From: Cellulomonas sp. S1-8
Lineage (GTDB): Bacteria; Actinomycetota; Actinomycetes; Actinomycetales; Cellulomonadaceae
Assembly: GCF_026184235.1 (NCBI RefSeq)
Contig: NZ_CP110806.1
Location: 3,658,001-3,722,000 of the forward strand
Reading direction: 5' to 3'
Length of the DNA stretch: 64,000 nucleotides
The translations under genes and the position numbers were made by a program. Each line of letters starts with the position of its first letter. The first letter of the stretch is position 1. The notes beneath the pieces were generated by a model. The model did no database searches. It was not told where the DNA came from and was given only the letters and a program-made list of their open reading frames with translations. This document shows positions 49,608-64,000 of the stretch, piece after piece.

Positions 49608-50660
49608 TCAGCCCACCGGCCCCGTCGACGACCTGACCACCAGGTGCGTCGGCAGCAGCACGGGGTCGGCCGCGTCGCGGGGGTCGACCACGGGGTCGTC
49701 GTCCAGGTCGCGGGCGAGGCCGTCCTCGTCGTCCGGGCGGTCTCCCTCGAGGCGGGCGAGGAGCAGGTCGGCGGCCATGCGACCGGCGCGCTCGACGGGT
49801 GACTCGACGGTCGTCAGCGCGGGGCGGACGAGGTCGGCGCCGAAGATGTCGTCGCAGCCGATGACGCTCATGCGCTCGGGCACGGGGACGCCCCGCGCGT
49901 CGAGGCGTTCGAGGACCCCGAACGCGAGCAGGTCGTTGAACGTGATGACCGCGGTCGCGTCCGCCGCCAGGGCTGCGTCGGCGGCCTGCGCGCCGGACGT
50001 GCGGACGGGCGCGTACGGCCCGAGCACGACGAGCTCGACGCCGAGCCGGGAGGCCGCGGGCACCAGCGCCTCGCGCCGGCGCCGGTCGGACCACGACGTG
50101 GCGGGCCCCGACGCGTAGACGATGCGCGTGTGCCCCAGGCCGGCGAGGTGCTCGAGCGCCTGGACCATGCCGCCGGCGGTGTCGAGCAGCACGCCGGGCG
50201 TGCCGGGGATCGTGCGGTTGACGACGACGAGCGCGAGGTCGGCGGCCGCGGCCGCGATCTGCTCGTCGGACAGCCGCGAGGCCGCGAGGACGGCGCCGTC
50301 GACCTGGCCGCGCAGCTTGCGCAGCGTGTCGAGCTCGACCTCGGCGGACTCCTCGGTGTCCGCGAGCACCTGCACGTACCCGGACTCCCGCAGCCGCGCG
50401 CTGGTGCCGCGCACGAGGCCGAAGAAGAACGGGTTGGTGACGTCGGGCAGGACGAGCGCGACGGTCGCGGTGCGCCCGGACAGCAGCGCGCGCGCCGACG
50501 CGCTGGGGATGTAGCCGAGCTCCTGCGCCGCGGCGACGACGCGGTCGGCGGTGTCGGAGTTGACGCGACCGGGCCGGGTGAGGGCGCGCGAGGCGGTCGA
50601 CACCGCGACCCCTGCCGCCGCGGCGACGTCGCGCAACGTGGGCTGCCGCCTGACGGCCAT
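49608..50660 (-). CDS. LacI-family repressor of the glucuronate/GH67 operon
   Basis: Repressor of 350 aa. The N-terminal HTH and hinge are [27 protein letters not shown], with the hinge in [10 protein letters not shown]. The periplasmic-binding-like sugar domain follows ([51 protein letters not shown]). It diverges from the mannonate dehydratase gene and a perfect LacI-type operator (50717-50736) lies between, so it should repress that operon and itself until a uronate or aldouronate appears. A 30-residue acidic insertion near the C terminus ([19 protein letters not shown]) is unusual. Confidence 0.92.
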
Positions 50661-50716
50661 GCACCCTCCTGGTCGGTCGTCCGGTCCTGCGCGACGGTGC
50701 GCAGAACCCCAATCTT

Positions 50717-50736
50717 GCTGGCAAACGATTGCCAGC
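50717..50736. promoter_or_regulatory. Perfect LacI-family operator
   Basis: GCTGGCAA and TTGCCAGC flank ACGA with the central CG that LacI-family hinges intercalate. TTGCCA (50729-50734) can serve as the -35 for TAGTCT (50753-50758, 18-base spacer) reading towards the mannonate dehydratase gene, so bound repressor would cover the promoter. Confidence 0.85.
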
Positions 50737-50805
50737 CTACCGTGTCCGTGCCTAGTCTCACTAGTGCCTTCGCGACGACGCGAACGGCGGAAGGAGCATG
50801 TCACG

Positions 50806-52041
50806 ATGCCCGGCACCACCATCCGCACGGCCGAGGTTCTGGTCTCCAGTCCCGGCCGCAATTTCGTGACGTTACGCGTCGTCACCGAGGACGGCGTCGA
50901 GGGCCTCGGGGACGCCACCCTCAACGGACGCGAGCTGTCGGTCGCCAGCTACCTCACGGACCACGTCGTCCCCCTGCTCATCGGCAGGGACGCACACACG
51001 ATCGAGGACACGTGGCAGTTCCTGTACCGCAGCGCGTACTGGCGGCGCGGCCCGGTGACGATGGCCGCCATCGCCGCCGTCGACGTGGCGCTGTGGGACA
51101 TCAAGGCGAAGGTCGCGGGCCTGCCGCTGTACCAGCTGCTCGGCGGGGCGTCGCGCTCCGGGATCATGGCGTACGGGCACGCGTCCGGCCGTGACCTGCC
51201 CGAGCTGTTCGACTCCGTCCGCGAGCACCTCGACCTGGGCTTCCGCTCGATCCGGATCCAGACCGCCGTCCCCGGCATCGATGCGGTGTACGGGGTCGCC
51301 GCGCAGCCGTCGTCGTCGGGACGCTACGACTACGAGCCCGCCCAGCGCGCGCCCCTGCCGGCCGAGGAGGACTGGGACACCCGCGCCTACCTGCGGCACA
51401 TCCCGCAGGTCTTCGAGGCCGTGCGCAACGAGTTCGGCCCCGAGCTGCCGCTGCTGCACGACGGCCACCACCGCATGACGCCCATCCAGGCCGCGCGCCT
51501 CGGCAGGGACCTCGAGCCGTACGACCTGTTCTGGCTCGAGGACTGCACCCCCGCCGAGAACCAGGACGCGCTGCGGCTGGTGCGGCAGCACACCGTGACG
51601 CCGCTGGCGATCGGTGAGGTGTTCAACACCGTCTGGGACTACCAGACCCTCATCCGCGAGCAGCTCATCGACTACGTGCGCTCGGCCGTCACGCACACCG
51701 GCGGCATCACCGCGCTGCGCCGCATCCTCGACTACGCCGCGCAGTACCAGATCAAGTCCGGCATCCACGGGCCCACCGACATCTCACCCGTCGGCATGGC
51801 GGCCGCGCTGCACCTGGACCTCGCGATCCACAACTTCGGCATCCAGGAGTACATGCAGCACTCCGCGACGTCGCACGAGGTCTTCCGGACGTCGTTCACG
51901 TTCACCGACGGCTACCTGCACCCGGGGAACGAGCCGGGCCTGGGCGTCACGTACGACGACGACGCGGCCTCCCGGCACCCCTACCAGGCGGCGTACCTGC
52001 CGTTCAACCGACTCAAGGACGGCACGGTGCACGACTGGTGA
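50806..52041 (+). CDS. manD: D-mannonate dehydratase (enolase superfamily, ManD type)
   Basis: Mandelate-racemase-like enolase-superfamily enzyme of 411 aa that dehydrates D-mannonate to 2-keto-3-deoxygluconate in the hexuronate pathway. Metal ligands are in [23 protein letters not shown] and LAIGEVFNT, with [21 protein letters not shown] and HNFGIQEYM closing the site; the ManD-specific RPAL-like loop appears as AYGHASGRD. It overlaps the GH67 gene by four bases, so breakdown of released glucuronate is coupled to its release. The ATG at 50806 follows AAGGAG. RspA-type relatives with no activity exist, so the catalytic call is from context and motifs. Confidence 0.9.
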
Positions 52042-54053
52042 ACGACACGACCTCTCCCTCCGTTCATCCCGCGTGGCTCCCCGACGCCGCCTTCGCGCCG
52101 CTCGGCTCCCGACGCGTGCTCGTCGCGCTCGGACCCGACGCGGGACCCGTCGGCGCGACCGTCGTCGACGAGGTCCGCCGCGCGACCACGGCGCACGGCG
52201 GGTCGCTGACGGTTGCCGACGTCGCCTCGACGGCGGACGGTCACGACCTCGTCCTGCGCGTCGCCCCCGACGGCCCGGAAGCCGGGTCCACCCGACTGCG
52301 GACCGGTGGTGTCACCGTCGTCGTCGCCGGCGACGCCACCGGTCTGCTGCACGGCCTGCACGACGTGGTCCGCACGGGCGAGTCGGCCTTCGGGGCGGAT
52401 CATCCGCCTGTCGTCTCGCGGCCCGGCTCCCCGGTCCGCATGCTCGACCACTGGGACAACATCGACGTCCACCCCGTCATGGGCCAGGTCGAGCGCGGCT
52501 ACGCCGGTGGCTCGATCTTCTACGCCGACGGACGTGTGCGCGACGACCTGTCCCGCGTCGCGGCGTACGCGCGGCTGCTCGGGTCGATCGGCGTGAACGC
52601 GGTGGCGATCAACAACGTCAACGTGCACCGGGCCGAGGCGCGGCTGCTGACCGACGGGTTGCCGGACGTGGCACGCGTCGCCGACGTGTTCCGTCCGCAC
52701 GGGGTCCGCACGTACCTGTCGGTGTCGTTCGCGTCGCCCGTGACGCTGGGCGGCCTGTCGACGTCCGACCCCGCCGACCCGCAGGTGCAGGCGTGGTGGG
52801 CGGCGGCGGCCGACCGCGTCTACGCGACGATCCCGGACTTCGGGGGGTTCGTCGTCAAGGCGGACTCCGAGGGGCAGCCGGGGCCGTTCGCCTACGGGCG
52901 CGACCATGCCGACGGGGCGAACCTGCTGGCCAGGGCGCTGCGCCCGCACGGCGGCACCGTGTTCTGGCGTGCGTTCGTCTACAACCACGAGCAGGACTGG
53001 CGCGACCGACGCACCGACCGGGCCCGCGCGGCCTACGACCACTTCGCGCCGCTCGACGGCCGGTTCGACGACAACGTGGTTCTGCAGGTCAAGTACGGTC
53101 CCGTCGACTTCCAGACGCGCGAGCCGATCTCGCCCGTCCTGGCCGCGATGCCGCGCACCCGTCTGGCGGTCGAGCTGCAGGTCACGCAGGAGTACACCGG
53201 GCACCAGAAGCACGTGTGCTACCTGGGGCCGCTGTGGTCGCAGGTCCTCACGTTCCCGCTGGCGGACGACGCCACGCGGGCCGTCGCGTCGATCGTCGCG
53301 GGGCTGCCGAGCGGACCGGCCGGTGGCATCACGGCCGTGTCGAACGTCGGCGACGACGAGTTCTGGACGGGGCACCCGCTCGCGCAGGCGAACCTCTACG
53401 CGTACGGGCGGCTCGCGTGGTCCCCCGAGGCGGACCCCGTCGACCTGCTCGACGAGTGGATCGGCCTGACGTTCCCCGATGCCGACCCGCGCGTGCGCTC
53501 GACCCTGCACACGCTCATGGACGAGTCGTGGCTGACGTACGAGGCGTACACCGCACCGCTCGGCGTCGGCTTCATGGTCGACCCGCTGCGTGGGCACTAC
53601 GGCCCCAACGTCGACGGGTACGAGTACTCCAAGTGGGGCACGTACCACTTCGCCGACCGCGACGGCATCGGCGTCGACCGGACGGTCGCGACGGGCACGG
53701 GCTTCGCGGGCCAGTACCCGTCACCGTGGCGCGAGACGTACGAGGACCTCGCCACCTGCCCGGACGAGCTGCTGCTGTTCTTCCACCACGTGCCGTACGG
53801 GCACGTCCTGCACAGCGGGAAGACCGTCATCCAGCACATCTACGACACGCGCGCGGACGCGGTGGACGTCGTGACGTCGTGGGTGGAGGAGTGGGCGGCG
53901 CTGCACGGACTGGTCGACGAGCGGCTGCACGCGCGCGTCGCCGAGCGGCTGACCGAGCAGGTCCGCTCGGCCACCGAGTGGCGCGACCAGCTCCGCTCGT
54001 ACTTCTCCCGCAAGTCCGGCGTCCCCGACGCGACGGGCCGCCCGATCTACTGA
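52038..54053 (+). CDS. Alpha-glucuronidase, glycoside hydrolase family 67
   Basis: GH67 enzyme of 671 aa that removes (4-O-methyl)glucuronic acid from the ends of aldouronic acids derived from glucuronoxylan. The [14 protein letters not shown] block, [46 protein letters not shown] (cut here as [14 protein letters not shown]), [18 protein letters not shown] and [20 protein letters not shown] are typical of the family. There is no signal peptide, so it acts inside the cell on imported oligosaccharides. It is coupled to manD and ends at a good terminator. Control by the neighbouring LacI protein is likely. Confidence 0.94.
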
Positions 54054-54069
54054 TCCGGGCGCCGAGAGT

Positions 54070-54108
54070 GTGAAGGGTTGTTGCCGGATCCCGGCAACAA
54101 CCCTTCAC
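54070..54108. terminator. Terminator between GH67 gene and aldo-keto reductase
   Basis: Perfect 18-bp stem: GTGAAGGGTTGTTGCCGG (54070-54087) and its complement (54091-54108) around ATC, followed by GCTTTC. It separates convergent genes and should work in both directions. Confidence 0.85.
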
Positions 54109-54127
54109 GCTTTCGCAGGGCGGCGGT

Positions 54128-55168
54128 TCAGCGGCCCGTGCCGTCGATGGCGTGCTCGTCGATCGCCGTCAGCTCGTCGCCCGTGAGCGGGGGTGCCGTC
54201 AGCGCCGCCACGTTGGCCTCGAGCTGGGCCACCGAGCTCGCGCCGACCAGCGCGGACGTGACGCGCTCGTCGCGCAGCACCCACGTCAGCGCGAGCTGGG
54301 CGAGGGTCTGCCCGCGGCTCGACGCGATGTCGTTCAGCGCCCGCGCCCGCGTCAGGTAGGTCTCCGAGAGCGCGCGCTCCGACAGGAACGGGCTGGCACC
54401 GGCGATCCGCGACCCGGCCGGCGCGTCCCCGCCCAGGTAGCGGTCCGTCAGCAGGCCCTGCGCGAGCGGCGAGAACACGATGGTCCCGACGCCCAGGTCG
54501 CCCACGGCGTCCAGCAGCGACTCGCGCTGCCCCTCCCCCGCCTTCTCGACGTGCCGGTTGAACATCGAGTAGCTGGGCTGGTGGATGAGCAGCCGCACGC
54601 CCATCTCGGCGAGCACCGCGTGCGCCTCACGGGTCTGCGACGGCGAGTAGTTGGAGACGCCGACGTACAGCGCCTTGCCGCTGCGCACGGCCTGCGCGAG
54701 CGCACCCATGGTCTCCTCGATCGGCGTCGAGGGGTCCGGGCGGTGGTGGTAGAAGACGTCGACGTACTCCAGGCCCATGCGGCGCAACGACGCGTCGAGC
54801 GACGCCAGCAGGTACTTGCGCGACCCGCCGTCCTGGTACGGGCCCGACCACATGTCGTAGCCCGCCTTGGTGGAGATGACGAGCTCGTCGCGGTACGGGC
54901 GCAGGTCCGCCGCCAGGTGCCGACCGAAGTTCTCCTCCGCCGCGCCCGGCTGCGGGCCGTAGTTGTTGGCCAGGTCCAGGTGCGTGATGCCCAGGTCCAG
55001 CGCCCGACGCAGCACGTCGCGCTGCGTCGCGAACGGTGTGAGGTCACCGAAGTTGTGCCACAGCCCCAGCGACAGCGCCGGCAGGTCGAGGCCCGAGCGT
55101 CCCGTGCGGCGGTAGGTCATCGTGGCGTACCGGTCGTCGGCGGCGCGGTACGGGTCGAGCGCGGGCAT
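54128..55168 (-). CDS. Aldo/keto reductase (YghZ/Kv-beta-like)
   Basis: NADPH-dependent reductase of 346 aa, probably acting on L-glyceraldehyde 3-phosphate or methylglyoxal. The catalytic tetrad is visible: Asp and Tyr in THLDLANNYGPQPGAAEENFG, Lys in VISTKAGYDMW and His in YVDVFYHHRPDP. The C terminus has the cofactor block SALVGASSVAQLEANVAAL. Length and the VFSPLAQGLLTDRYL loop favour the YghZ group. It stands alone, convergent with the GH67 gene. Confidence 0.91.
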   Translation of the reverse strand: MPALDPYRAADDRYATMTYRRTGRSGLDLPALSLGLWHNFGDLTPFATQRDVLRRALDLGITHLDLANNYGPQPGAAEENFGRHLAADLRPYRDELVISTKAGYDMWSGPYQDGGSRKYLLASLDASLRRMGLEYVDVFYHHRPDPSTPIEETMGALAQAVRSGKALYVGVSNYSPSQTREAHAVLAEMGVRLLIHQPSYSMFNRHVEKAGEGQRESLLDAVGDLGVGTIVFSPLAQGLLTDRYLGGDAPAGSRIAGASPFLSERALSETYLTRARALNDIASSRGQTLAQLALTWVLRDERVTSALVGASSVAQLEANVAALTAPPLTGDELTAIDEHAIDGTGR

Positions 55169-55226
55169 GAGGTGCTCCTCGTCGTCGGGTGTCGTCCAGG
55201 CTATGTCCGGCGTCGCCAGGCGTCCG

Positions 55227-55243
55227 GCATGCTTGGTTCATGC
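55227..55243. promoter_or_regulatory. GCATG-N7-CATGC palindrome, probable operator of the second VapBC
   Basis: GCATG (55227-55231) and CATGC (55239-55243) frame CTTGGTT. The right arm touches the -10 hexamer TACCGT (55244-55249), seven bases before the antitoxin ATG, a typical place for autoregulation. Confidence 0.5.
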
Positions 55244-55256
55244 TACCGTCATGCCC

Positions 55257-55508
55257 ATGGCGACTCTGCAGGTCAAGCACCTTCCTGACGACCTCCATGC
55301 GCGGTTGGCGGACCGCGCGCGTCGGTCGGGGACCACCATGTCGGACTACGTCACCCGCTTGCTGGAGCGAGACCTCGACCGTCCTACCGTCGACGAGTGG
55401 CTCACCGCCCACCCGCTCCCCGCGTCCGGGCCGCAGATCGACGTGGTCGTGGCGCTCGACGCCGTGCGAGCCGAGTACGCGCCGGACGTCGCCGTCACGA
55501 GACCGTGA
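55257..55508 (+). CDS. FitA/VapB-type antitoxin
   Basis: RHH antitoxin of 83 aa: MATLQVKHLPDDLHARLADRA, then TTMSDYVTRLLERDL, the FitA/VapB pattern. The C-terminal part (about 45-83) is acidic and Pro-rich and should block the toxin. The ATG at 55257 is chosen over the ATG at 55251 since TACCGT ends seven bases before it and no Shine-Dalgarno is present. It overlaps the toxin start by four bases. Confidence 0.85.
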   Translation: MATLQVKHLPDDLHARLADRARRSGTTMSDYVTRLLERDLDRPTVDEWLTAHPLPASGPQIDVVVALDAVRAEYAPDVAVTRP

Positions 55509-55897
55509 GAGTCGTGCTCGACGCGAGCGTTGCTGTCCACGTCGTCACAGGGGGCACGCTCGCGGCCTCTGCCCGTCGACGACTGTCCGGAACGACGCCC
55601 GTAGCCCCCTCGCTCATCGACACCGAGGTGATGTCGGCGCTCGCCCGGCTGGAGCGCGGCGGGCACCTCACGTCGGAGGCGGCGGACGACGCACTCGCCG
55701 CCTGGACCGGGTTCCCGTGCGATCGCCTGGACACGACCCGACTCATGCCGCACGTGTGGGCGCTGCGCGGACGGGTGCGCGTCGCCGACGCACAGTACGT
55801 CGCGCTCGCTGCTGCGCTCGACGCGCCGCTGCTCACCGCCGACCGCCGCCTCGTCGGTGCGCACGTCCCCGGTGTGAGCGTGCTGCTCGTGCAATGA
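55505..55897 (+). CDS. VapC-type PIN-domain toxin, second module
   Basis: PIN ribonuclease of 130 aa. Acidic residues are placed as expected: VVLDASVAVHVV, SLIDTEVMSALARLE, and RVADAQYVALAAALDAPLLTADRRL. The GTG start overlaps the antitoxin stop (GTGA). This is the second VapBC in the window; the two toxins share only family-level similarity by eye. It is followed, 74 bases on, by the TAC-like operon. Confidence 0.87.
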   Translation: MRVVLDASVAVHVVTGGTLAASARRRLSGTTPVAPSLIDTEVMSALARLERGGHLTSEAADDALAAWTGFPCDRLDTTRLMPHVWALRGRVRVADAQYVALAAALDAPLLTADRRLVGAHVPGVSVLLVQ

Positions 55898-55971
55898 CGT
55901 GCACGGCACGGGCGCATCGCGGCGACCCGCGACGGCACGGCCCTGTCCCGTGCACCCGGTATCGTCCCGGC

Positions 55972-56547
55972 ATGCCGACGCCCGGGCGCTCGTCCAGCAG
56001 CAGCGGTGGGTTGCCGGTCGACGTCTTCTGGCACGCGATCCCGGACCGGCACCTGCTGTCGGAGCACGTCGACGCGATCACCGAGGTCCTCATGGACGTC
56101 GTCACCGCCCCGGCCGGCCGCCGCTGGAACCCGTACAACGCGACGATGGCGCGCCGGGAGTTCCGGCACCGGCTCGTCGAGGCGAGCCGCGGCGCGCTCA
56201 CGCCGCTCGACCACGTCAAGAGCATCGAGCACCCGCTGGCGGCCGAGATGTTCGAGGTCCGCTGGCAGCACGTCCGGGTCACCGAGGAGCGGCCGGACGG
56301 GCGGCTGCGGCACCGGGACGCCCAGGTGCGGCTGCTGCACGCCGAGCCCGGGGCGCTCGGCGTGGTCGCCCTGGGGCTGCACGCGCACGAGAAGGTGGTC
56401 GTGCCCGGCGACGCACGCGCGACGCGCGCGGCGCAGGACGCCGAGATCGTCCGCGCGACGTCCGTCTACGCGACGGCGCTGCCCGTCTGGCTCACCCGCT
56501 CACCCGTGCAGCCGTTGCAGCGGGACCTCGACGGCAGCATAGGATAG
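55972..56547 (+). CDS. Putative HigB/RelE-like toxin of a toxin-antitoxin-chaperone operon
   Basis: Protein of 191 aa. The middle and end resemble Gp49/HigB toxins of the RelE fold: HVKSIEHPLAAEMFEVRW recalls the strand around the active-site loop, then a VVALGLHAHEKVVVP strand and a final helix DAEIVRATSVY where relatives have the Lys/Arg-rich tP-x-x-EI-x-x-A helix. Catalytic residues are not certain, and the N-terminal 60 residues are extra. The main support is context: an XRE antitoxin starts five bases downstream and a SecB-like gene follows. TATCGT lies six bases before the ATG at 55972 (leaderless). GCACGG-N7-CCGTGC at 55935-55953 overlaps the expected -35. A different RNA- or protein-acting toxin is possible. 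Confidence 0.6.
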   Translation: MPTPGRSSSSSGGLPVDVFWHAIPDRHLLSEHVDAITEVLMDVVTAPAGRRWNPYNATMARREFRHRLVEASRGALTPLDHVKSIEHPLAAEMFEVRWQHVRVTEERPDGRLRHRDAQVRLLHAEPGALGVVALGLHAHEKVVVPGDARATRAAQDAEIVRATSVYATALPVWLTRSPVQPLQRDLDGSIG

Positions 56548-56555
56548 AACCTATG
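56538..56555 (+). promoter_or_regulatory. CATAGG-N6-CCTATG palindrome, probable HigA operator and internal promoter
   Basis: Perfect 6-bp arms around ATAGAA. It spans the toxin stop and the antitoxin start codon. It also contains TAGGAT (56540-56545), a -10 hexamer seven bases before the antitoxin ATG, implying a separate leaderless transcript for antitoxin and chaperone. As I recall, the M. tuberculosis HigA operator is ATATAGG-N6-CCTATAT, the same core and spacing. Confidence 0.7.
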
Positions 56556-56939
56556 GCAGACGAGGACCTCGACACGATCACCCGTCGTGCCGACGCGCTC
56601 ATCGAGGACCACGCGGCGCTGCGCACGCGGCTCGTCGCGCTGCGCAAGGAGCACGGGCTCTCCCAGGCCCTCGTCGCCGAGCGCATGGGCGTCAGCCAGC
56701 CGACCGTCGCCGGCTTCGAGCGCTACGACGCCAACCCCACGCTCGCGACGCTGCGCCGCTACGCGCTGGCCGTCGGCGCGCGTACCCGCTCCACCGTCAT
56801 CGACGACTGCGCGGACGCGCACCGGTCGTTCGTCGCCGTCGTGACGGCGGCGACGCTCACCCCCGCTCCCGCCGCGAGGCCGCTGAGCGTCCCCTCGTGG
56901 AGCACCCGCACGACCGTCCTGGCGACGACCGGTGCCTGA
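56553..56939 (+). CDS. XRE-family antitoxin (HigA-like) with C-terminal extension
   Basis: Protein of 128 aa. The helix-turn-helix is at about residues 26-75 (RLVALRKEHGLSQALVAERM, then VSQPTVAGFERYD). A C-terminal extension of about 50 residues (from 76) ends in a Ser/Pro/Trp segment LSVPSWSTRT, comparable in place to the chaperone-addiction segment of TAC antitoxins, which SecB-like chaperones bind. It follows the toxin by five bases and overlaps the SecB-like gene by eight. It should repress through the palindrome at its own start. A nearly identical piece of this gene lies at 60086-60190. Confidence 0.82.
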   Translation: MADEDLDTITRRADALIEDHAALRTRLVALRKEHGLSQALVAERMGVSQPTVAGFERYDANPTLATLRRYALAVGARTRSTVIDDCADAHRSFVAVVTAATLTPAPAARPLSVPSWSTRTTVLATTGA

Positions 56940-57366
56940 GCAGTCCGACGCGCTGGCCGCGCTCACGGCGTCCGCCGCTCTCGAGGACCTGTCCTTCGTC
57001 GAGCTGCACGCCCTGCGCCGGCTCGACGCCCCGCCCGACGCCACCGGCGCGGGAGAACCGCAGTTCACGCTCCAGGCGCAGCAGAACGACGAGGACGACC
57101 GCCGGTTCCGCCTGCTGCTGTCGGTCGAGGTGGATGTCGGCATCGGCGAGCTGCGGGTCGCGACGCTCGCGCAGTACGTGGTCACCGACGCGGCGCTCCC
57201 CCTGCCGCAGCGGCTCGTCGTGGAGTTCGCCAACGACAGCGGCATCGCGACGATGCTGCCGTTCCTGCGGCACGGCATCGCGGACCTGACCCAGCGGGTG
57301 TTCGGCTCGACCCTGCTGATGCCGCTGCTCCCTCGCGGCGCGGTGGCCTTCCCGCTCCCCGACTGA
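56932..57366 (+). CDS. SecB-like chaperone of the TAC operon
   Basis: Protein of 144 aa with the SecB fold pattern: a first strand region FVELHALRRLD, strands FTLQAQQNDEDDRRFRLLLSVEVDVGIGE (shown shortened as FTLQAQQND), then the LAQYVVTDAALPLPQ helix-loop, and the closing ATMLPFLRHGIADLTQRVFG-S-TLLMPLLPRG, matching SecB's L-x-PY-x-R-x-x-I-x-x-L-T motif (here LPFLRHGIADLT). Mono-derm actinobacteria do not normally use SecB for export; stand-alone SecB-like proteins there serve antitoxins (Rv1957 in M. tuberculosis). The GTG at 56932 overlaps the antitoxin stop by eight bases. Confidence 0.75.
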   Translation: MPEQSDALAALTASAALEDLSFVELHALRRLDAPPDATGAGEPQFTLQAQQNDEDDRRFRLLLSVEVDVGIGELRVATLAQYVVTDAALPLPQRLVVEFANDSGIATMLPFLRHGIADLTQRVFGSTLLMPLLPRGAVAFPLPD

Positions 57367-57383
57367 CCCGTGAGCCGGTCCGG

Positions 57384-57914
57384 TCACGCGATACGGGCCC
57401 GTTCGGAGCCGATGCCGGTCAGGCCTGCGTCGTTCAGTGCGGCCAGGACGTCGTCGGTGACGATCGTGATGTCGTTCAGCTCGGGCACGATGAAGACGCG
57501 GTGCCCGTCGAGCTTGGCGCGGTCCAGGACCCAGCGGATCGGCAGACCGCTGGGACCCCAGTTCGTGCTGCTGTGCAAGAGGTCGTAGAAGACCGGGAAG
57601 TGCATCACCCAGTACGGGAGATGTTCACCGGCCGGCATGGTGAGGGTGGCTGGGAGCCACTGGATCGCGTCGCGCTCACCGAGGCAGTCCTCCAGGATGG
57701 TCCGCACGCTGGGCGAGACCAGCCGAGTCATGTCCGCCGTTCCCACCCAGTCCTCTGCGGGACCCTCAAGCGGCCACCGCCAGATCAGCTCGGGGACATC
57801 CGCAAGGTAGCCCTCGTCCGTCAAGCGCCGCCTGAATCGTCTGTCGCTGGGCGCCACTCGCTCGGCGAGCCGGACCGCCTGTGACGGGCTGAGCACGTGG
57901 AAGTCAGTTGCCAT
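57384..57914 (-). CDS. Probable immunity protein for the AHH nuclease toxin
   Basis: Cytosolic protein of 176 aa. The C-terminal FIVPELNDITIVTDDVLAAL, followed by a GLTGI turn, resembles the DUF1629/Imm11 (MXAN_0049-type) immunity fold. Its position immediately after the toxin gene, with the ATG at 57914 eleven bases inside the toxin's 3' end, is the classical toxin-immunity arrangement. No signal peptide is present, as expected for a protein guarding the cytoplasm. The family call is tentative; the role rests on context. Confidence 0.68.
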   Translation of the reverse strand: MATDFHVLSPSQAVRLAERVAPSDRRFRRRLTDEGYLADVPELIWRWPLEGPAEDWVGTADMTRLVSPSVRTILEDCLGERDAIQWLPATLTMPAGEHLPYWVMHFPVFYDLLHSSTNWGPSGLPIRWVLDRAKLDGHRVFIVPELNDITIVTDDVLAALNDAGLTGIGSERARIA

Positions 57915-60033
57915 ACTTGTCACAGTTCCAGTAAGAGTGGCGCACGATGCTGGGATCGGCTTTGACGACATCGACGACCCAGGCCGTGAAGAGTCGCTTG
58001 AACTCGACGACGTCGCCGTCAGCCACTTTGTCTGCCTTGATCAGATTGTTGAGCACCCACTGGTGGTAACCGACTGGGTGAGGGCCGCGGTGTGGGATCT
58101 GAACCAGGTTCCACGCCTTGGCTGCGTCGTCGATGCTGAGACCATAAGCGTCCGCGATCTCCTGAAATCGCTGTCGCCAGGCACCGTACTTCGTCGCCAT
58201 GTGGTGGTCCTGGTCGGGCATCGACTCGACGAGCTTGCCGCGGACCCATGGGTCTTCGATGCAGCTGGGCGGCGGCTTGATCCCTGCGCCGGCAGGGTCG
58301 GGTTCAGGCTCCGGCGCGGCCGTGGGTTCCTCGCTGGGCGCGCCCTCGTCGATGCATCCCGGCTCGTCGCGCTCGGAGTACATGCAGTCCGGATCGAGCA
58401 CCGGCGGTTCGGGTCCGTACGGGGCGTCGAGCAGCGCAGCGAAGACACCGGCGCTGCCCGGGCTCCCGCTGGTACGGGCGGCGACACGCAGCGCGTCCTG
58501 GACGCCGTGGGCGCGGCAGACGATGACGACGTCGGGGATCCACAGATCGGGCGCCTGGGGGCGCAGCTTCTCGCCGAGGACGGCGCAGCCCTGCTCGAGG
58601 CCGTACCGGTCGACCAGGCGAGCGCGCAGGGTAGCGACGGGTGCTGACTCGAGGTCGAGGGCCGGCCAGGACGCGACCGTGATGGTGCCGTCGGGACCGA
58701 TCGACCCGTTCGGTAGCAGTTGGCCGGGGTCGCGGAAGATCGAGCAGAACGACAGGTCGACCTGGTAGGGCCCAAATCCGCAGCCGTACGTGAGTGCCCG
58801 GTCCGGGTCGACGTACCAGTCCCCGCAGTCCACAGCGCCGAGCCCGCAGCTGGACGGCGGCGTGGTGTCGGTCCGGTACAGGTGCAACCGGCAATCGGCA
58901 CCTGGCGCGAGGCACTCGGGGTAGGCGGAGGGGAGGCCGCGAACCCACGCCGGGGTCTGGGTTTCGGGCACTACCGTGACGCGCGGCGCGTGGGAGCTTC
59001 GGGGGATCCAGTCGGAGCCGAAGAAGGAGACGACCGAGCCGGGCGGGCAGGTCAGCGCGTCCAGGTGGTACCGGCCCCCGGAAGTGACATCTCCGTCCCA
59101 GCGTTGCGTGAGACTCGTGACCCGCCCGTCGGCGTCGACACAGGTGATGCTGCGCTCCAGCGTGCCCTCGCCAGGTTCCGCGTCGTCGCGCAGGGGGTGC
59201 CCCGGCGGGTAGTAGTGTCCCAGAACTTGGTTGTCGTACGCCGCGACGAAATCAACGTGACTGAACCCACCTTTGGAGGTGCCTTGGCATGCGGTGGCGC
59301 CAGGTTTGAAGGTATAACTGAGAGTCCCGGAGCTGTCAGACCCAGGCTTGAGGCCTCGATATGCCAGCGGTTGTGTTCCTAGCGCCGCGGTGCCGTTCTT
59401 GCAGCGGACGATCATCCCAATCGACGGAAGCTCATTCCATGCTGTCCACTTCCCCGTCCAGACGACGCTGTAATCGAAAGCGAAGGTGCCGGTCGGGGCC
59501 CCGTAATCGGGTAGTGACGGGTTCGACCATGTGATGAACGCGCTGGACTCGGGGTAGACATTCGCCCGCCGAACGCGCTCGTACGTCTCCGTCGGGGCGA
59601 ATCCCGGGGCAGGTGGCACGGGCAAGCCCCCTGCGCCCGGCGATGCCTCGGTGCCGTCTCCGATGACCAGCTCGGTGGCGGCGTACCCCACCGCAGTCAC
59701 GCCAGCGGCGGTGTTCAGGCCCAGCTGCGTCGCGGTGGTGACGCCGGTGACGCCAGCGCTCGAACCGGCAGTCGCGACAGTCGCACTGCCCAGGCCCGCG
59801 CCTGCGTCGAGAGCACTCAGGACGGCGAGCCCGGTGGGGTTGCACAGCGACGACATCGGAGGGCAACCAGTCGAGGTGCCGGCGACCATCGCGGTGACGG
59901 GGACCGGCACGGCGAGAAGAGCAGCGGCTGGTGGTGCGGCTACCACCCCGGACACGCCAAGCAGGAGGACGACACCGATCGACATCTGTCGCGTACGCAC
60001 GTTCACGAGCCCCGTTCGTGTGGACCTGGTCAT
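57904..60033 (-). CDS. Secreted polymorphic toxin with C-terminal AHH nuclease domain
   Basis: Protein of 709 aa. A Sec-type signal (about residues 18-40, MSIGVVLLLGVSGVVAAPPA) is followed by a Gly/Ala/Thr-rich stretch, a Cys-rich beta region of some 350 residues with many paired Cys (for example DCGDWYVDP, YGCGFGPYQVDLSFC), a Pro/Glu linker, and at the end the AHH signature DQDHHMATKYGAWRQRF, then QIPHRGPHPVGYHQW, giving the HH, H and H-x-x-H positions of this HNH-like nuclease family. There is no LXG, WXG or T6 marker, so export is probably by Sec. Base composition is lower in GC than the neighbours in 57900-59500. The ATG at 60033 precedes the signal; an earlier one at 60081 is possible. 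Confidence 0.78.
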   Translation of the reverse strand: MTRSTRTGLVNVRTRQMSIGVVLLLGVSGVVAAPPAAALLAVPVPVTAMVAGTSTGCPPMSSLCNPTGLAVLSALDAGAGLGSATVATAGSSAGVTGVTTATQLGLNTAAGVTAVGYAATELVIGDGTEASPGAGGLPVPPAPGFAPTETYERVRRANVYPESSAFITWSNPSLPDYGAPTGTFAFDYSVVWTGKWTAWNELPSIGMIVRCKNGTAALGTQPLAYRGLKPGSDSSGTLSYTFKPGATACQGTSKGGFSHVDFVAAYDNQVLGHYYPPGHPLRDDAEPGEGTLERSITCVDADGRVTSLTQRWDGDVTSGGRYHLDALTCPPGSVVSFFGSDWIPRSSHAPRVTVVPETQTPAWVRGLPSAYPECLAPGADCRLHLYRTDTTPPSSCGLGAVDCGDWYVDPDRALTYGCGFGPYQVDLSFCSIFRDPGQLLPNGSIGPDGTITVASWPALDLESAPVATLRARLVDRYGLEQGCAVLGEKLRPQAPDLWIPDVVIVCRAHGVQDALRVAARTSGSPGSAGVFAALLDAPYGPEPPVLDPDCMYSERDEPGCIDEGAPSEEPTAAPEPEPDPAGAGIKPPPSCIEDPWVRGKLVESMPDQDHHMATKYGAWRQRFQEIADAYGLSIDDAAKAWNLVQIPHRGPHPVGYHQWVLNNLIKADKVADGDVVEFKRLFTAWVVDVVKADPSIVRHSYWNCDKYGN

Positions 60034-60085
60034 GAACCTAGGGCGCAGCAGCCAGGCTGACGTGCGGCGTTCGGGTGACATGGCG

Positions 60086-60190
60086 GACGCTGCGCCGCGA
60101 CACGCCGACCGTCGGCACGAGCACCCGCTCCACCGTCATCGACGACTGCGCCGACGCGCACCGGTCGTTCGTCGCCGTCGTGACGGCTGC
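60086..60190 (+). pseudogene. Truncated duplicate of the TAC antitoxin gene
   Basis: Read in frame, this segment gives TLRRDTPTVG, then TRSTVIDDCADAHRSFVAVV. That matches residues about 66-100 of the intact antitoxin. At base level 60125-60187 equals 56786-56848 at 62 of 63 positions, in the same orientation; the upstream 40 bases are more diverged. The HTH, start codon, operator and chaperone gene are missing, so it cannot work. It lies 50 bases upstream of the start of the AHH toxin gene. Confidence 0.85.
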
Positions 60191-60232
60191 TGAGCGGCGC
60201 AGACACTCATGCGCTCGCTCGTCGGCCCCACC

Positions 60233-62185
60233 TCACCGCGTCAGCGAGCGCAGCACCTCGTCCGCCTGCTCGTCGCGGCCCGCGGCGCGCAGCACGTCGA
60301 CCAGCGCCGACGCCGCCTCGCCGCGTGGTTCGCGCTGCCGGGCCATCGTGAAGCCCTCGACCGCCGACTCGAGGTTCCACACCGCGTCGTCGACCTGGCC
60401 CAGGCCGCCGTGCAGGCGGCCCGCGAGCCAGAACGCGTGCGCGGCGTCGTTCACGGCGTCGACACCCGCGTAGCCCTCGGCGGCCTTCGACGCGCGGCGC
60501 GCGGCGTCGGCGACGCGGTCGCCGCCCATCGAGGCGAGCACGCGCGCCGCGGTGTCGTGCAGGTCGGCGCGGGCGCGGCGCCGCGCGTACGACAGGCGCT
60601 CGTCGAGGTCGGCCCCGGCGGCGAGCGCGGCGGGGTCGGCGGACGCCCCCGGCGCGGACGCGTCGGTGAGCTCGTCGAGCAGCCCGTCGATGGCGTCGAG
60701 CACCGCCTGACCTGTCCCGGTGGTGACGGCCACGGGCGCCCACGCCACGACGACGGGCACGACGTCCGGTGCGGCGACCCCGCCGGCACGCATCCGGGCG
60801 ACCGCGTCCGGGTACGTCGCGGCCGCGCCGTCGTCGTCCCCGGCCTCCTGCGCGCACCGGGCGGCCTCCGCCCGCGCGAGGCCCGCGTCGGCGAGCCGGC
60901 CCTCGACGTCCGCCTCGCCCGCGACCGCGAGCCACGCGGCTGCCGCGGCGACCAGGTCACCGGCCGTCGTCAGGCGCTCGGCACGCGCCACGAGGGTCTC
61001 CTCGAGGGCGTCCTCGTCCGACGTGCCCGCAGGGGCGACGACGTGCGTCGGGGCTCCGGACGTGCTCGCGGCGCCCTCGGCGACGGGGATCACCTCCAGG
61101 TCGAGGCGCACGTCTGCCGGGCGCGTCGTCCTGGCGCGCGCGAGGTGCTGCGCGAACCGGTCGGTCCCGTTGCGCTCGTCGAACGCGCGCGCCAGCTCCG
61201 CGGCCTGGGCGTCCGCCCACGCGTGCAGCCCGGCGACGTCGGTGACGGGGATGTCGGCGAGCGCGACGGGGGTGCCCGCGTGCTCCGGCAGCAGCGCCGC
61301 CGTCCCCGCGACGACGAAGGCGAGGAACCCGAACCGGTCGTGCGGGGTGTCCGCGCGCAGCAGGAGAGTCGCGTCGGACGCGAGGGCCCGCAGCGCGCGC
61401 GTGGGCTGGCCGCCCCGCGCGAGGAGCACGAAGCGCCGGCCGCGCGCACCGGCCATGTCCGACTGCGAGCCCGCGAGGGCCGCGACCGCGCGCCGGTGCA
61501 CCGCGACCGCGTCCTGCGGACGGCCCGCGTCGAGGTGCAGCAGCGCGAGCGTCGACAGCATGTCGGCGGGCTCGGTCGCGCACGTCTCCCCGGAGTCGAG
61601 GGTCTGCTCGATGAGACGGACCGCCTCCGGCACGTCGCCGCGCTCCGCGAGGTACCCGGCGCGGTCGCCCGGGTCGCACGCCTCGCACTGCGAGTAGTCG
61701 TCACGCGGTGTGCGGACCCACTCCTCGTAGAGCGCGTCCACGTCGGCCGCGCCGCGCGACCGCGCCCACGAGAACTTCTCGTACGCGACCGCGTCACGTC
61801 CGAGGCCGGCGACGGCGTAGCGCCGCTCCATGTCCTCGACGGTCGCGTCGATCTGCTCCGCGGGGACGTTCGGGAAGTCCGACAGGTGCCCGACCATCCA
61901 CTTGAACGACCAGAACAGGCCCTGCACGTCCTGCTCGTCGAGGTGCTCGGGGTGCTGCTCGTACCAGCGCACGGCCTGCGTGAACGGCAGGTACGCCCGG
62001 TCGACCTCACCGCCCCACACGAGCGACTCGACCAGCACGAGCAGCGCGAACGCGCGCGCCCCGTCAGGCCCCTCGGCCTCGGAGAGCCGCACCTGCTGCT
62101 CCGCCGCCTGCGTGCGCGCCGCCCCGTAGGGCAGCGCACGCACGCGGGAGATCTCGCGGTTCGCCTCGTCGAGCGAGCGGGTCAC
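60233..62185 (-). CDS. Large TPR-like helical protein coupled to the Hsp90 gene
   Basis: Protein of 650 aa, almost wholly helical, with TPR-like pairs such as EPADMLSTLALLHLDAGRPQ, FWLAGRLHGGLGQVDDAVWNLESAV (second helix) and VDVLRAAGRDEQADEVL. No catalytic motif is seen. The GTG at 62185 overlaps the Hsp90 stop by four bases (GTGA), so the two are made together, and a scaffold or co-chaperone role is plausible but unproven. A CxxC (QCEACDPG) is present once. Confidence 0.75.
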   Translation of the reverse strand: MTRSLDEANREISRVRALPYGAARTQAAEQQVRLSEAEGPDGARAFALLVLVESLVWGGEVDRAYLPFTQAVRWYEQHPEHLDEQDVQGLFWSFKWMVGHLSDFPNVPAEQIDATVEDMERRYAVAGLGRDAVAYEKFSWARSRGAADVDALYEEWVRTPRDDYSQCEACDPGDRAGYLAERGDVPEAVRLIEQTLDSGETCATEPADMLSTLALLHLDAGRPQDAVAVHRRAVAALAGSQSDMAGARGRRFVLLARGGQPTRALRALASDATLLLRADTPHDRFGFLAFVVAGTAALLPEHAGTPVALADIPVTDVAGLHAWADAQAAELARAFDERNGTDRFAQHLARARTTRPADVRLDLEVIPVAEGAASTSGAPTHVVAPAGTSDEDALEETLVARAERLTTAGDLVAAAAAWLAVAGEADVEGRLADAGLARAEAARCAQEAGDDDGAAATYPDAVARMRAGGVAAPDVVPVVVAWAPVAVTTGTGQAVLDAIDGLLDELTDASAPGASADPAALAAGADLDERLSYARRRARADLHDTAARVLASMGGDRVADAARRASKAAEGYAGVDAVNDAAHAFWLAGRLHGGLGQVDDAVWNLESAVEGFTMARQREPRGEAASALVDVLRAAGRDEQADEVLRSLTR

Positions 62186-64000
62186 ACGTCCTCCTGGGTC
62201 TCGTCGGGCACGCGCGGGACGTCGGACGCGAGTCCGGCGTCGAGCAGCACACCCATGGCGTCGTTCATCAGCTCGGCCTCGCGCACCCGCAGCGGCTCGC
62301 CCGCCAGCAGCACGGCCGTGACGTACAGCGAGCGCACGCCCGCGGCCAGGACCGGGGCGTCGGGCGCGGCCGTCAGCAGGCGTCGTACCGTCGGGTTGTC
62401 GTCGTTCAGGACGAGCCTGCGCCCCGGCGCGTCACCCTCGCCCGCGAACCCCGCCAGGACCCCGCCCCACAGGTCGTCCGCCTCGGACACCGCCCGCAGG
62501 ACGTCGTCGCGGTGCCGCGCGTCCCGGTCCTCGAGCAGCATGGCGGGCACCTGCTCGGGCGCGAAGCGCCGCACGACGAGGTCGCAGTCCAGCGGCAGGA
62601 CCACGCGACGGGCCGCCTGCACCTGGTCGAGGACCTCGAGCTCGCGGTGCGGCTCCAGGGGCTCGAGCACCTGGGCGACGTCCTGCGCGCGCAGCTCGCG
62701 CACCCGCCAGCCGGGTCTGCGCGCCAGACGCTCGAGCAGGTCCGCGTCGTACACGTAGCCGGCGTTGACGACCGTCATGCCCTGGGCGCGCGCGACGGAC
62801 GCGACGCGGCGGAAGTCCTCGACGCGCGTGGCGTGCAGGACCTCACCGTGCGCGTCGCGCACGTCGACGAGCGTCTGCGCGCCGTCGGTCGTCTCGAACG
62901 GGAGGACCTGCGCGACGAGGTCCAGCACCTCGTCGTCGACGACCGCGAGGGAGCGCAGCGCCAGGTGGTGCGTCGTGACGACCTCCCGGCTCGCGGCCGA
63001 CGACGACGTCAGGGTGCCGACCGCCCACGCGCGCACCTGCGCCGCCAGCGCCTCCTGCGCCGCGAGGAGCGTGTCGTCAGTGTAGAGCTGCTCGCGCGAC
63101 GCGGTCGGCCGCAGCACCGTGGTGTCGACGACGCACCGGACGAAGAACGCCCAGTCCGGCAGCAGGTCCTCGACGTGGGCGCCCAGCAGCATGCGCTTGA
63201 GGTAGACCCGGTGCCGCGAGCCCGCGCCGGGCGGCACCGCGGTCGGCAGGACGTAGGCGACCCCGGACAACCCGGCGAGCGGCACCGCGAGGTCGATGTG
63301 CGCCAGCGGCGTGAAGCCCAGGGTGCGCTCGCAGTAGGCGGCGAGCGCGGCGGTGCGCGCGTCCTCGTCCGCGTACGTCGCACGCCACGGCAGGACCGGC
63401 TCGCTGGTCCGGCGCCACGCGTAGCCGTCGGTCCCCGTCAACGGGACCTCGACGGCGACGTCGAACGGCAGCAGCGCGCCGAACTCCTCCGCGAGCGCGA
63501 CCACGGTCTCGGCGGCCAGCCAGTGCTCCATGTCGCGGCGCGCACGCAGCCGCACGGTGCTGCCCGCCGGGACGTCGGCGTCGGCCGGGAGCACCGTGAG
63601 GTCGTACCGCCCGTCGGCATACCCGACCCAGCGCACGGGCGGCGCGTCGGGGTCGGTCGCGGAGCGCGACACCAGCTCGATCTCGTCGGCGACCATGAAC
63701 GCCGACAGCAGCCCGATGCCGAACTGCCCCAGGAACTCCTCACGCCCCAGCCCCAGGTCCAGGTCCCGCTTGGACGAGCGACCCACCGTGGCGAGCAGCT
63801 CCTCCGCCTGCGCCGGCGTGAGCCCGACGCCCGTGTCGGTGACCTCGAGGGTGCCGTCGGGACCCGGGCGCAGCCGCACGGCGGCGGGCGCGTCCGGGTC
63901 GACGGCACGCCGTGCCGTGATCGCGTCGACACCGTTCTGCAGCAGCTCGCGCACGTAGACCCGCGGCCCCGAGTACAGGTGCCGTGCCAGCAGGTCGACG
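62182..64000 (-). CDS. Hsp90-family chaperone (HtpG-like), 5' end outside window
   Basis: GHKL ATPase, 605 codons plus stop visible; the start lies beyond base 64000. The ATP site is clear: RELLQNGVDAI (catalytic Glu and Mg-binding Asn), VTDTGVGLT and FLGQFGIGLLSAFMVADE. The middle domain follows with RVYLKRMLLGAHVEDLLPDWAFFVR-type sequence (KRMLLGAHVEDLLP) and the Arg loop RPTASREQLY. The C-terminal part is diverged from E. coli HtpG, as in the short actinobacterial Hsp90-like group. It is the first of two coupled genes, with the TPR-like gene behind it. Confidence 0.9.
   Translation of the reverse strand, partial: VDLLARHLYSGPRVYVRELLQNGVDAITARRAVDPDAPAAVRLRPGPDGTLEVTDTGVGLTPAQAEELLATVGRSSKRDLDLGLGREEFLGQFGIGLLSAFMVADEIELVSRSATDPDAPPVRWVGYADGRYDLTVLPADADVPAGSTVRLRARRDMEHWLAAETVVALAEEFGALLPFDVAVEVPLTGTDGYAWRRTSEPVLPWRATYADEDARTAALAAYCERTLGFTPLAHIDLAVPLAGLSGVAYVLPTAVPPGAGSRHRVYLKRMLLGAHVEDLLPDWAFFVRCVVDTTVLRPTASREQLYTDDTLLAAQEALAAQVRAWAVGTLTSSSAASREVVTTHHLALRSLAVVDDEVLDLVAQVLPFETTDGAQTLVDVRDAHGEVLHATRVEDFRRVASVARAQGMTVVNAGYVYDADLLERLARRPGWRVRELRAQDVAQVLEPLEPHRELEVLDQVQAARRVVLPLDCDLVVRRFAPEQVPAMLLEDRDARHRDDVLRAVSEADDLWGGVLAGFAGEGDAPGRRLVLNDDNPTVRRLLTAAPDAPVLAAGVRSLYVTAVLLAGEPLRVREAELMNDAMGVLLDAGLASDVPRVPDETQEDV

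What the first reader, a model, noticed from the sequence alone, without database searches (positions are those of the whole stretch)
55972..57366. A probable toxin-antitoxin-chaperone (TAC) operon with a SecB-like chaperone
Seen: three overlapping or nearly touching genes encode a HigB/RelE-like protein, an XRE antitoxin with a 50-residue C-terminal tail, and a protein with SecB landmarks (LPFLRHGIADLT and the closing PLLPRG). Known: in M. tuberculosis HigB1-HigA1-Rv1957, the SecB-like chaperone protects an aggregation-prone antitoxin through a C-terminal addiction segment. Inferred: this is a divergent TAC in a different actinobacterial lineage, with an unusually long (191 aa) toxin. The toxin's extra N-terminal region and poorly conserved active site make it potentially a new toxin class.
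Basis: partly seen in the sequence, partly recalled or inferred. Interest (0 to 1): 0.8.

Follow-up and report, generated by a model that had tools for sequence, protein, structure and literature searches.

The report
Divergent actinobacterial toxin-antitoxin-chaperone operon
Three neighbouring genes look like a bacterial toxin, its antidote and a SecB-type chaperone that probably keeps the antidote alive, in a version so divergent that the protein-family libraries tried here do not recognise the toxin or the chaperone.

The parts
55972..56547 (+). Gene 1: HigB/RelE-fold toxin candidate, 191 aa (helices 29-45 and 54-72, strands between 80 and 140, long last helix 148-176)
56218..56394 (+). Codons of the presumed active-site positions K83, E95, R97, R120 and K141 of gene 1 (first to last)
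   Evidence: E95, R97, R120, K141 invariant and K83 at 90% or more in 27 rows; in register with Gp49-family K, E-x-R, R and K, whose score is not above reversed controls; HigB1 residues from PMC9098466
56515..56520 (+). TTGCAG, -35-like hexamer inside the toxin gene, 19 nt before the -10-like hexamer
   Evidence: A TTG between -45 and -26 of the antitoxin start in 12 of 15 loci
56538..56555 (+). Palindrome CATAGG-N6-CCTATG over the toxin stop codon and the antitoxin start codon; holds TAGGAT (56540-56545) seven nt before the ATG
   Evidence: TANNNT-N7-ATG in 15 of 15 loci kept (the 16th, L019, does not fit and was left out); pair -10/-3 complementary in 14 of 15, G-C in 6 and A-T in 8
56553..56939 (+). 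Gene 2: XRE antitoxin candidate, 128 aa
   Evidence: Translation; HTH_3 E 3.8e-11; relatives next to the toxin in 16 of 16 loci
56805..56936 (+). Codons of the 44-residue C-terminal tail, chaperone-addiction candidate with VPSW
   Evidence: Trp in 13 of 15 tails; VPx(1-2)W in 8 of 15, shuffle mean 0.32, maximum 4 in 2000; published ChAD peptide EVPTWHRLSSYRG (PMC6377645)
56932..57366 (+). Gene 3: SecB-like chaperone, 144 aa, GTG start overlapping gene 2
55900..60231 (.). Segment absent from a same-genus genome (L070): holds the operon, an AHH-nuclease gene and the gene beside it
   Evidence: (pieces over 120 bits): L070 is collinear with window 49972-55899 and 60232-64000; about 22 nt lie between the flanks there; AHH E 7.2e-7

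Best explanation
This is a toxin-antitoxin-chaperone (TAC) operon of the HigB type, in a divergent actinobacterial clade. Gene 1 is a RelE-fold toxin that, when free, most likely enters the ribosomal A site and cuts mRNA, as HigB1 does. Gene 2 binds and inhibits it and represses its own promoter through a palindrome that covers the antitoxin start codon. The tail of gene 2 is a chaperone-addiction segment that keeps the antitoxin unfolded or degradable unless the SecB-like gene 3 protein binds it. Anything that takes the chaperone away (phage structural proteins, export or folding stress) would let the antitoxin be degraded and free the toxin. Shown here: gene content and order, conservation at other loci, the predicted SecB fold of gene 3, predicted fold similarity of gene 1 to HigB, the tail, the conserved element at the antitoxin start, absence from a sister genome. 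Inferred: RNA cleavage, inhibition, chaperone dependence, autoregulation, trigger.
Against: Foldseek alone found no gene 1 match with E below 0.001; its top rows are ketosteroid isomerases and CaMKII hubs at E 0.019 and above. The HigB match appears only in the second-look aligner. Profile-profile comparison of gene 1 with 12 Gp49-family rows scored no better than reversed controls (18.7 against 20.2 and 19.3), so residue equivalence with HigB is not proven by sequence. The window's own genes 1 and 3 hit no SecB, HigB, Gp49 or RelE family. L006, L007 and L019 have a third gene that the chaperone profile misses; two tails (L003, L007) lack tryptophan. In the palindrome only the pair -10/-3 varies informatively: two of the three invariant pairs are forced by the start codon, and the pairs outside and inside the core match in only 5 of 15 loci. 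No function was measured.
Confidence: 0.82

Rival explanations
1. Same anatomy, but the toxin does something other than ribosome-dependent mRNA cleavage: the family's own RRWNPY, RLLHAEP and HAHEK blocks and the long hairpin mark a new activity or target on the RelE fold.
For: Gene 1 is unlike every family model tried, as are 20 family members in Pfam; blocks not seen in the Gp49 rows are largely conserved; RelE/ParE-fold toxins differ in target (start of the abstract of PMC11980606, listing).
Against: Best structural matches are HigB toxins, of which HigB1 is a ribosome-bound mRNA cutter; E-x-R, R and K sit at corresponding places.
Confidence: 0.25
2. An abortive-infection device: the chaperone is the sensor, titrated by phage capsid or tail proteins, as in CmdTAC and HigBAC.
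For: CmdTAC (passages of PMC11618068) and HigBAC (passage in PMC11980606) work so; gene 3 relatives hit PD-T4-9_C; patchy spread and a variable site; phage integrase next to L007 and relaxase next to L009.
Against: No phage data. Defence genes nearby were hardly looked for: only genes between 52038 and 60081 went to Pfam and only the three operon genes to PADLOC. Viral and plasmid scans found no relative of gene 1. It is compatible with the best explanation rather than opposed to it.
Confidence: 0.45
3. Gene 3 is an ordinary SecB export chaperone that happens to lie next to a two-gene toxin-antitoxin pair.
For: SecB fold.
Against: 8-nt overlap with the antitoxin; a third gene in the same place in relatives; natural antitoxin-chaperone fusion L008; closest structure is the TAC chaperone, not export SecB; no PF02556 match in this genome at all, as expected if export SecB is not used.
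Confidence: 0.03

Closest known systems
TAC of Mycobacterium tuberculosis, HigB1-HigA1-Rv1957 (Rv1955-Rv1957)
   Same: Gene order toxin, antitoxin, SecB-like chaperone (PMC5105189); gene 3 fold closest to Rv1957; gene 1 aligns to HigB1; long last helix in the toxin; antitoxin tail with VP-S/T-W.
   Different: Toxin 191 aa with a long hairpin and conserved blocks of its own; gene 3 is 17% identical to Rv1957 in the structural alignment; no sequence-family hit for toxin or chaperone; antitoxin start codon within a palindrome.
HigBAC of E. coli (HigB, HigA, SecB-like HigC)
   Same: HigB-type toxin, antitoxin, SecB-like chaperone (passage in PMC11980606).
   Different: No phage trigger tested here; gene 1 does not match Pfam Gp49 or HigB models.
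CmdTAC (called PD-T4-9 in PADLOC; that equation is recalled)
   Same: SecB-like chaperone; relatives of gene 3 hit the PD-T4-9_C model.
   Different: CmdT is an ADP-ribosyltransferase (PMC11618068); gene 1 aligns to HigB. The window's own gene 3 does not hit PD-T4-9_C.
Gp49/HigB toxins (PF05973)
   Same: RelE fold with long last helix; E-x-R and LH...K motifs in register.
   Different: No PF05973 match to gene 1 or any of 20 family members.

Membership tests
Toxin-antitoxin-chaperone (TAC) systems | Adjacent toxin, antitoxin and SecB-like chaperone genes in one operon | tested here: met
   order kept in relatives; co-transcription itself not tested
Toxin-antitoxin-chaperone (TAC) systems | Third protein has the SecB fold | tested here: met
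Toxin-antitoxin-chaperone (TAC) systems | Antitoxin carries a C-terminal chaperone-addiction extension | tested here: inconclusive
   A 44-residue tail beyond the HTH with VPSW is there; binding to the chaperone not tested
Toxin-antitoxin-chaperone (TAC) systems | Chaperone is needed for antitoxin stability and toxin inhibition | not testable with these tools
   Needs expression assays
HigB/RelE-fold toxins | RelE fold | tested here: met
HigB/RelE-fold toxins | Catalytic K, E-x-R, R, K of HigB1 | tested here: inconclusive
   Candidates K83, E95, R97, R120, K141 conserved and in register, whose score is not above reversed controls
HigB/RelE-fold toxins | Ribosome-dependent mRNA cleavage | not testable with these tools
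   Needs biochemistry
Pfam Gp49 PF05973 | Score over the Pfam cut-off | tested here: not met
   No match for gene 1 or any of 20 members
Pfam SecB PF02556 | Score over the Pfam cut-off | tested here: not met
   No match for gene 3; best of 16 chaperone relatives tested 18.4 bits, cut-off 26
CmdTAC | ADP-ribosyltransferase toxin | tested here: not met
   Gene 1 has no family hit and its model aligns to HigB

The most novel reading that the evidence does not exclude
A clade of RelE-fold toxins with its own active-site blocks and target, run with a dedicated SecB-like chaperone as sensor and a leaderless, self-repressed antitoxin promoter; in one lineage the chaperone is covalently part of the antitoxin, so that sensing and neutralising sit in one protein.
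Probability: 0.25. Interest if true: 0.7.

Novelty: new variant of a known kind. Interest (0 to 1): 0.52.

Why it matters
A 2014 survey of SecB started from the Pfam SecB domain plus a separate approach that added 33 TAC chaperones outside that domain (PMC4257090, passages). Here both outer genes escape the family models tried, so TACs may be undercounted in monoderm bacteria. The family gives a toxin clade with strong motifs for mutagenesis, natural fusions for structural work, and a test of whether chaperone and antitoxin tail change together (L006 and L007, which share the tail motif VHPDS, are two of the three loci whose third gene the chaperone profile misses).

Tried and rejected
Rejected: 'poorly conserved active site'. 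Dropped before counting: L005 (G151, E 7e-4), whose match lies in the frame of a 590-aa ORF that reads, by eye, as an acyl-CoA ligase, so taken as chance and left out of the script; duplicates of loci already counted (L001, L002, L013, L014, L021-L029, L055; duplicates judged by place, contig length and score). L019 was left out of the count at the antitoxin start because its upstream sequence does not fit; L015 was left out of the tail count because its contig ends inside the antitoxin. L015 and L020 come from one genome and are near-identical.

Led nowhere: sequence search of the PDB with gene 3, gene 1 and the gene 1 alignment (only chance-level rows or none); first genome-contig scan with one sequence; viral contigs; plasmids; profile-profile test of gene 1 with Gp49 (not above controls); a look by eye for a shared element before the toxin start in 7 of the 16 loci (none seen). 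Folds missing are no evidence. How widely gene 3 alone is spread in whole genomes was not measured beyond the own genome (one match), because that search did not complete.

Full report
What is there. Three genes on the + strand: gene 1, 55972-56547, 191 aa; gene 2, 56553-56939, 128 aa; gene 3, GTG 56932 to 57366, 144 aa, overlapping gene 2 by 8 nt. Gene 2 is an XRE protein (HTH_3, E 3.8e-11). Genes 1 and 3 match no family in Pfam, NCBIfam, PADLOC or PHROGs, apart from one weak and unrelated NCBIfam row for gene 3 (E 0.17), and no solved structure by sequence above chance level.

Relatives. Gene 1 has 22 relatives besides itself in the protein collection. Gene 3 has two besides itself in a single-sequence search; a search with an alignment of nine gave 34 rows, itself included, with only the 7999 best candidates scored. 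Genome scans with gene 1, all on samples of larger groups: 4 of 200 genomes of the family, of which one is the window's own and one (L005) I take as chance; 7 of 396 of the order, own included; 1 of 394 of the class, the own one. The named collection, scanned for two short patterns, gave 7 loci, all Actinomycetota by their titles: a Bifidobacteriaceae and a Propionibacteriaceae assembly, Actinomyces ruminis, A. oris, an Actinomyces assembly, Schaalia cardiffensis and Schaalia sp. lx-260. Viral contigs and plasmids gave none. The spread is patchy and, as far as these scans reach, actinobacterial.

Operon conservation. Over 16 distinct loci (window included) a gene 2 relative follows the toxin in 16 of 16, and the chaperone profile hits the next gene in 12 of 16. 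Of those 12, eight (window, L004, L008-L012, L016) are in the profile or have a near-identical counterpart there; L003, L017, L018 and L020 are independent. In L006 and L007 a third gene is present but missed; in L019/L027 likewise; in L015 the contig ends inside the antitoxin. Two single-ORF fusions occur: antitoxin plus chaperone, 289 aa, in A. ruminis (L008), and toxin plus antitoxin, 332 aa, in P0011, a metagenome protein. L003 looks truncated at the antitoxin-chaperone junction; its antitoxin tail is 15 residues.

The antitoxin tail. In 15 tails (L015 left out) there are 22 tryptophans in 679 residues against 1 in 1273 core residues; 13 of 15 tails have at least one; VPx(1-2)W occurs in 8 of 15 against a shuffle mean of 0.32 and a maximum of 4 in 2000 shuffles. 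Five of the eight (L008, L009, L010, L012, L016) are close relatives, so the eight are not independent. The published addiction peptide is EVPTWHRLSSYRG, whose W108 is buried in the chaperone (PMC6377645, passages); the window has SVPSWSTRTTV. L006 and L007 share VHPDS instead.

A promoter-operator candidate at the antitoxin start. Upstream of the antitoxin ATG 15 of 16 loci (all but L019) have TANNNT seven nt before the ATG; ATA at -14 to -12, T at -8 and T at -1 are invariant. The pair -10/-3 is G-C in six, A-T in eight and unpaired in one; -11/-2 is complementary in 11 of 15; -15/+2 and -9/-4 in only 5 of 15; two of the three invariant pairs are forced by the start codon. Mean pairwise identity is 0.56 in the last 18 nt, against 0.29-0.30 further upstream and 0.42 in the first codons after the ATG. 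In the window this is CATAGGATAGAACCTATG, 56538-56555, overlapping the toxin stop codon. Perfect arms of six or more occur in 6 of 16 loci and in 837 of 8000 mononucleotide shuffles, about 10%, so a single site means little; the fixed register across loci is the evidence. Reading: a leaderless antitoxin promoter under autorepression. That actinobacterial leaderless promoters look so is recalled, not looked up.

Surroundings. A same-genus genome (L070) is collinear with window 49972-55899 and 60232-64000 and lacks what lies between (about 22 nt there instead; BLAST pieces over 120 bits only). So the operon, together with a 725-aa AHH-nuclease gene and the gene next to it, was gained here or lost there. 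The FitA-like/PIN pair just upstream (55257-55897) lies within the part shared with L070. Two other relatives (L068, L069) lose similarity right after the aldo/keto reductase gene, and L071 has other content before the flank resumes. Elsewhere the family lies next to a phage integrase (L007) and a relaxase (L009).

How it works, and what is known. TAC systems generally use HigBA, HicAB or MqsRA pairs with a SecB-like chaperone that protects the antitoxin through a C-terminal segment (PMC5105189, passages). CmdTAC and HigBAC are set off by phage proteins that take the chaperone away (PMC11618068 passages; PMC11980606 passages). The window's operon has the same parts in the same order, so the same logic is the best explanation; every functional step is inferred. 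Paper searches (listings only, apart from the papers named) showed no title or abstract start about this family. Sala 2013, cited in PMC4257090 for TAC systems, is not held, and subscription papers are mostly missing from the library, so an earlier mention cannot be excluded.

Verdict. Real, well supported as a TAC, divergent enough to be a new variant; not a new kind.

Noticed in passing
window 57904-60081 (-) and 57384-57971 (-): A 725-aa protein with a C-terminal AHH nuclease domain (E 7.2e-7) and, by eye, a signal-like N-terminal stretch; the 195-aa gene after it has no Pfam hit and may be its immunity gene: a polymorphic-toxin pair beside the operon.
   Followed up: partly
window 55257-55897 (+): A FitA-like ribbon-helix-helix antitoxin (27 bits, exactly at the Pfam cut-off) and a PIN-domain gene directly upstream, within the stretch shared with sister genome L070.
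   Followed up: partly
L069 4791-5135 (-): In another same-genus genome a 114-aa gene that by eye resembles MazF lies next to the aldo/keto reductase gene, so the site may be a hotspot for toxin-antitoxin genes.
   Followed up: no
L008 5529-6398 (+): Antitoxin and SecB-like chaperone in one 289-aa open frame in Actinomyces ruminis.
   Followed up: partly
L054 680-1980 (+): A different actinobacterial locus with a Gp49-family gene, a gene that reads by eye as HTH, and a Pfam SecB match below the curated cut-off in a row: possibly a more conventional TAC.
   Followed up: no
L004 1492-2025 (+): The toxin relative loses similarity after its conserved lysine; the end of the gene looks unrelated or shifted.
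   Followed up: no
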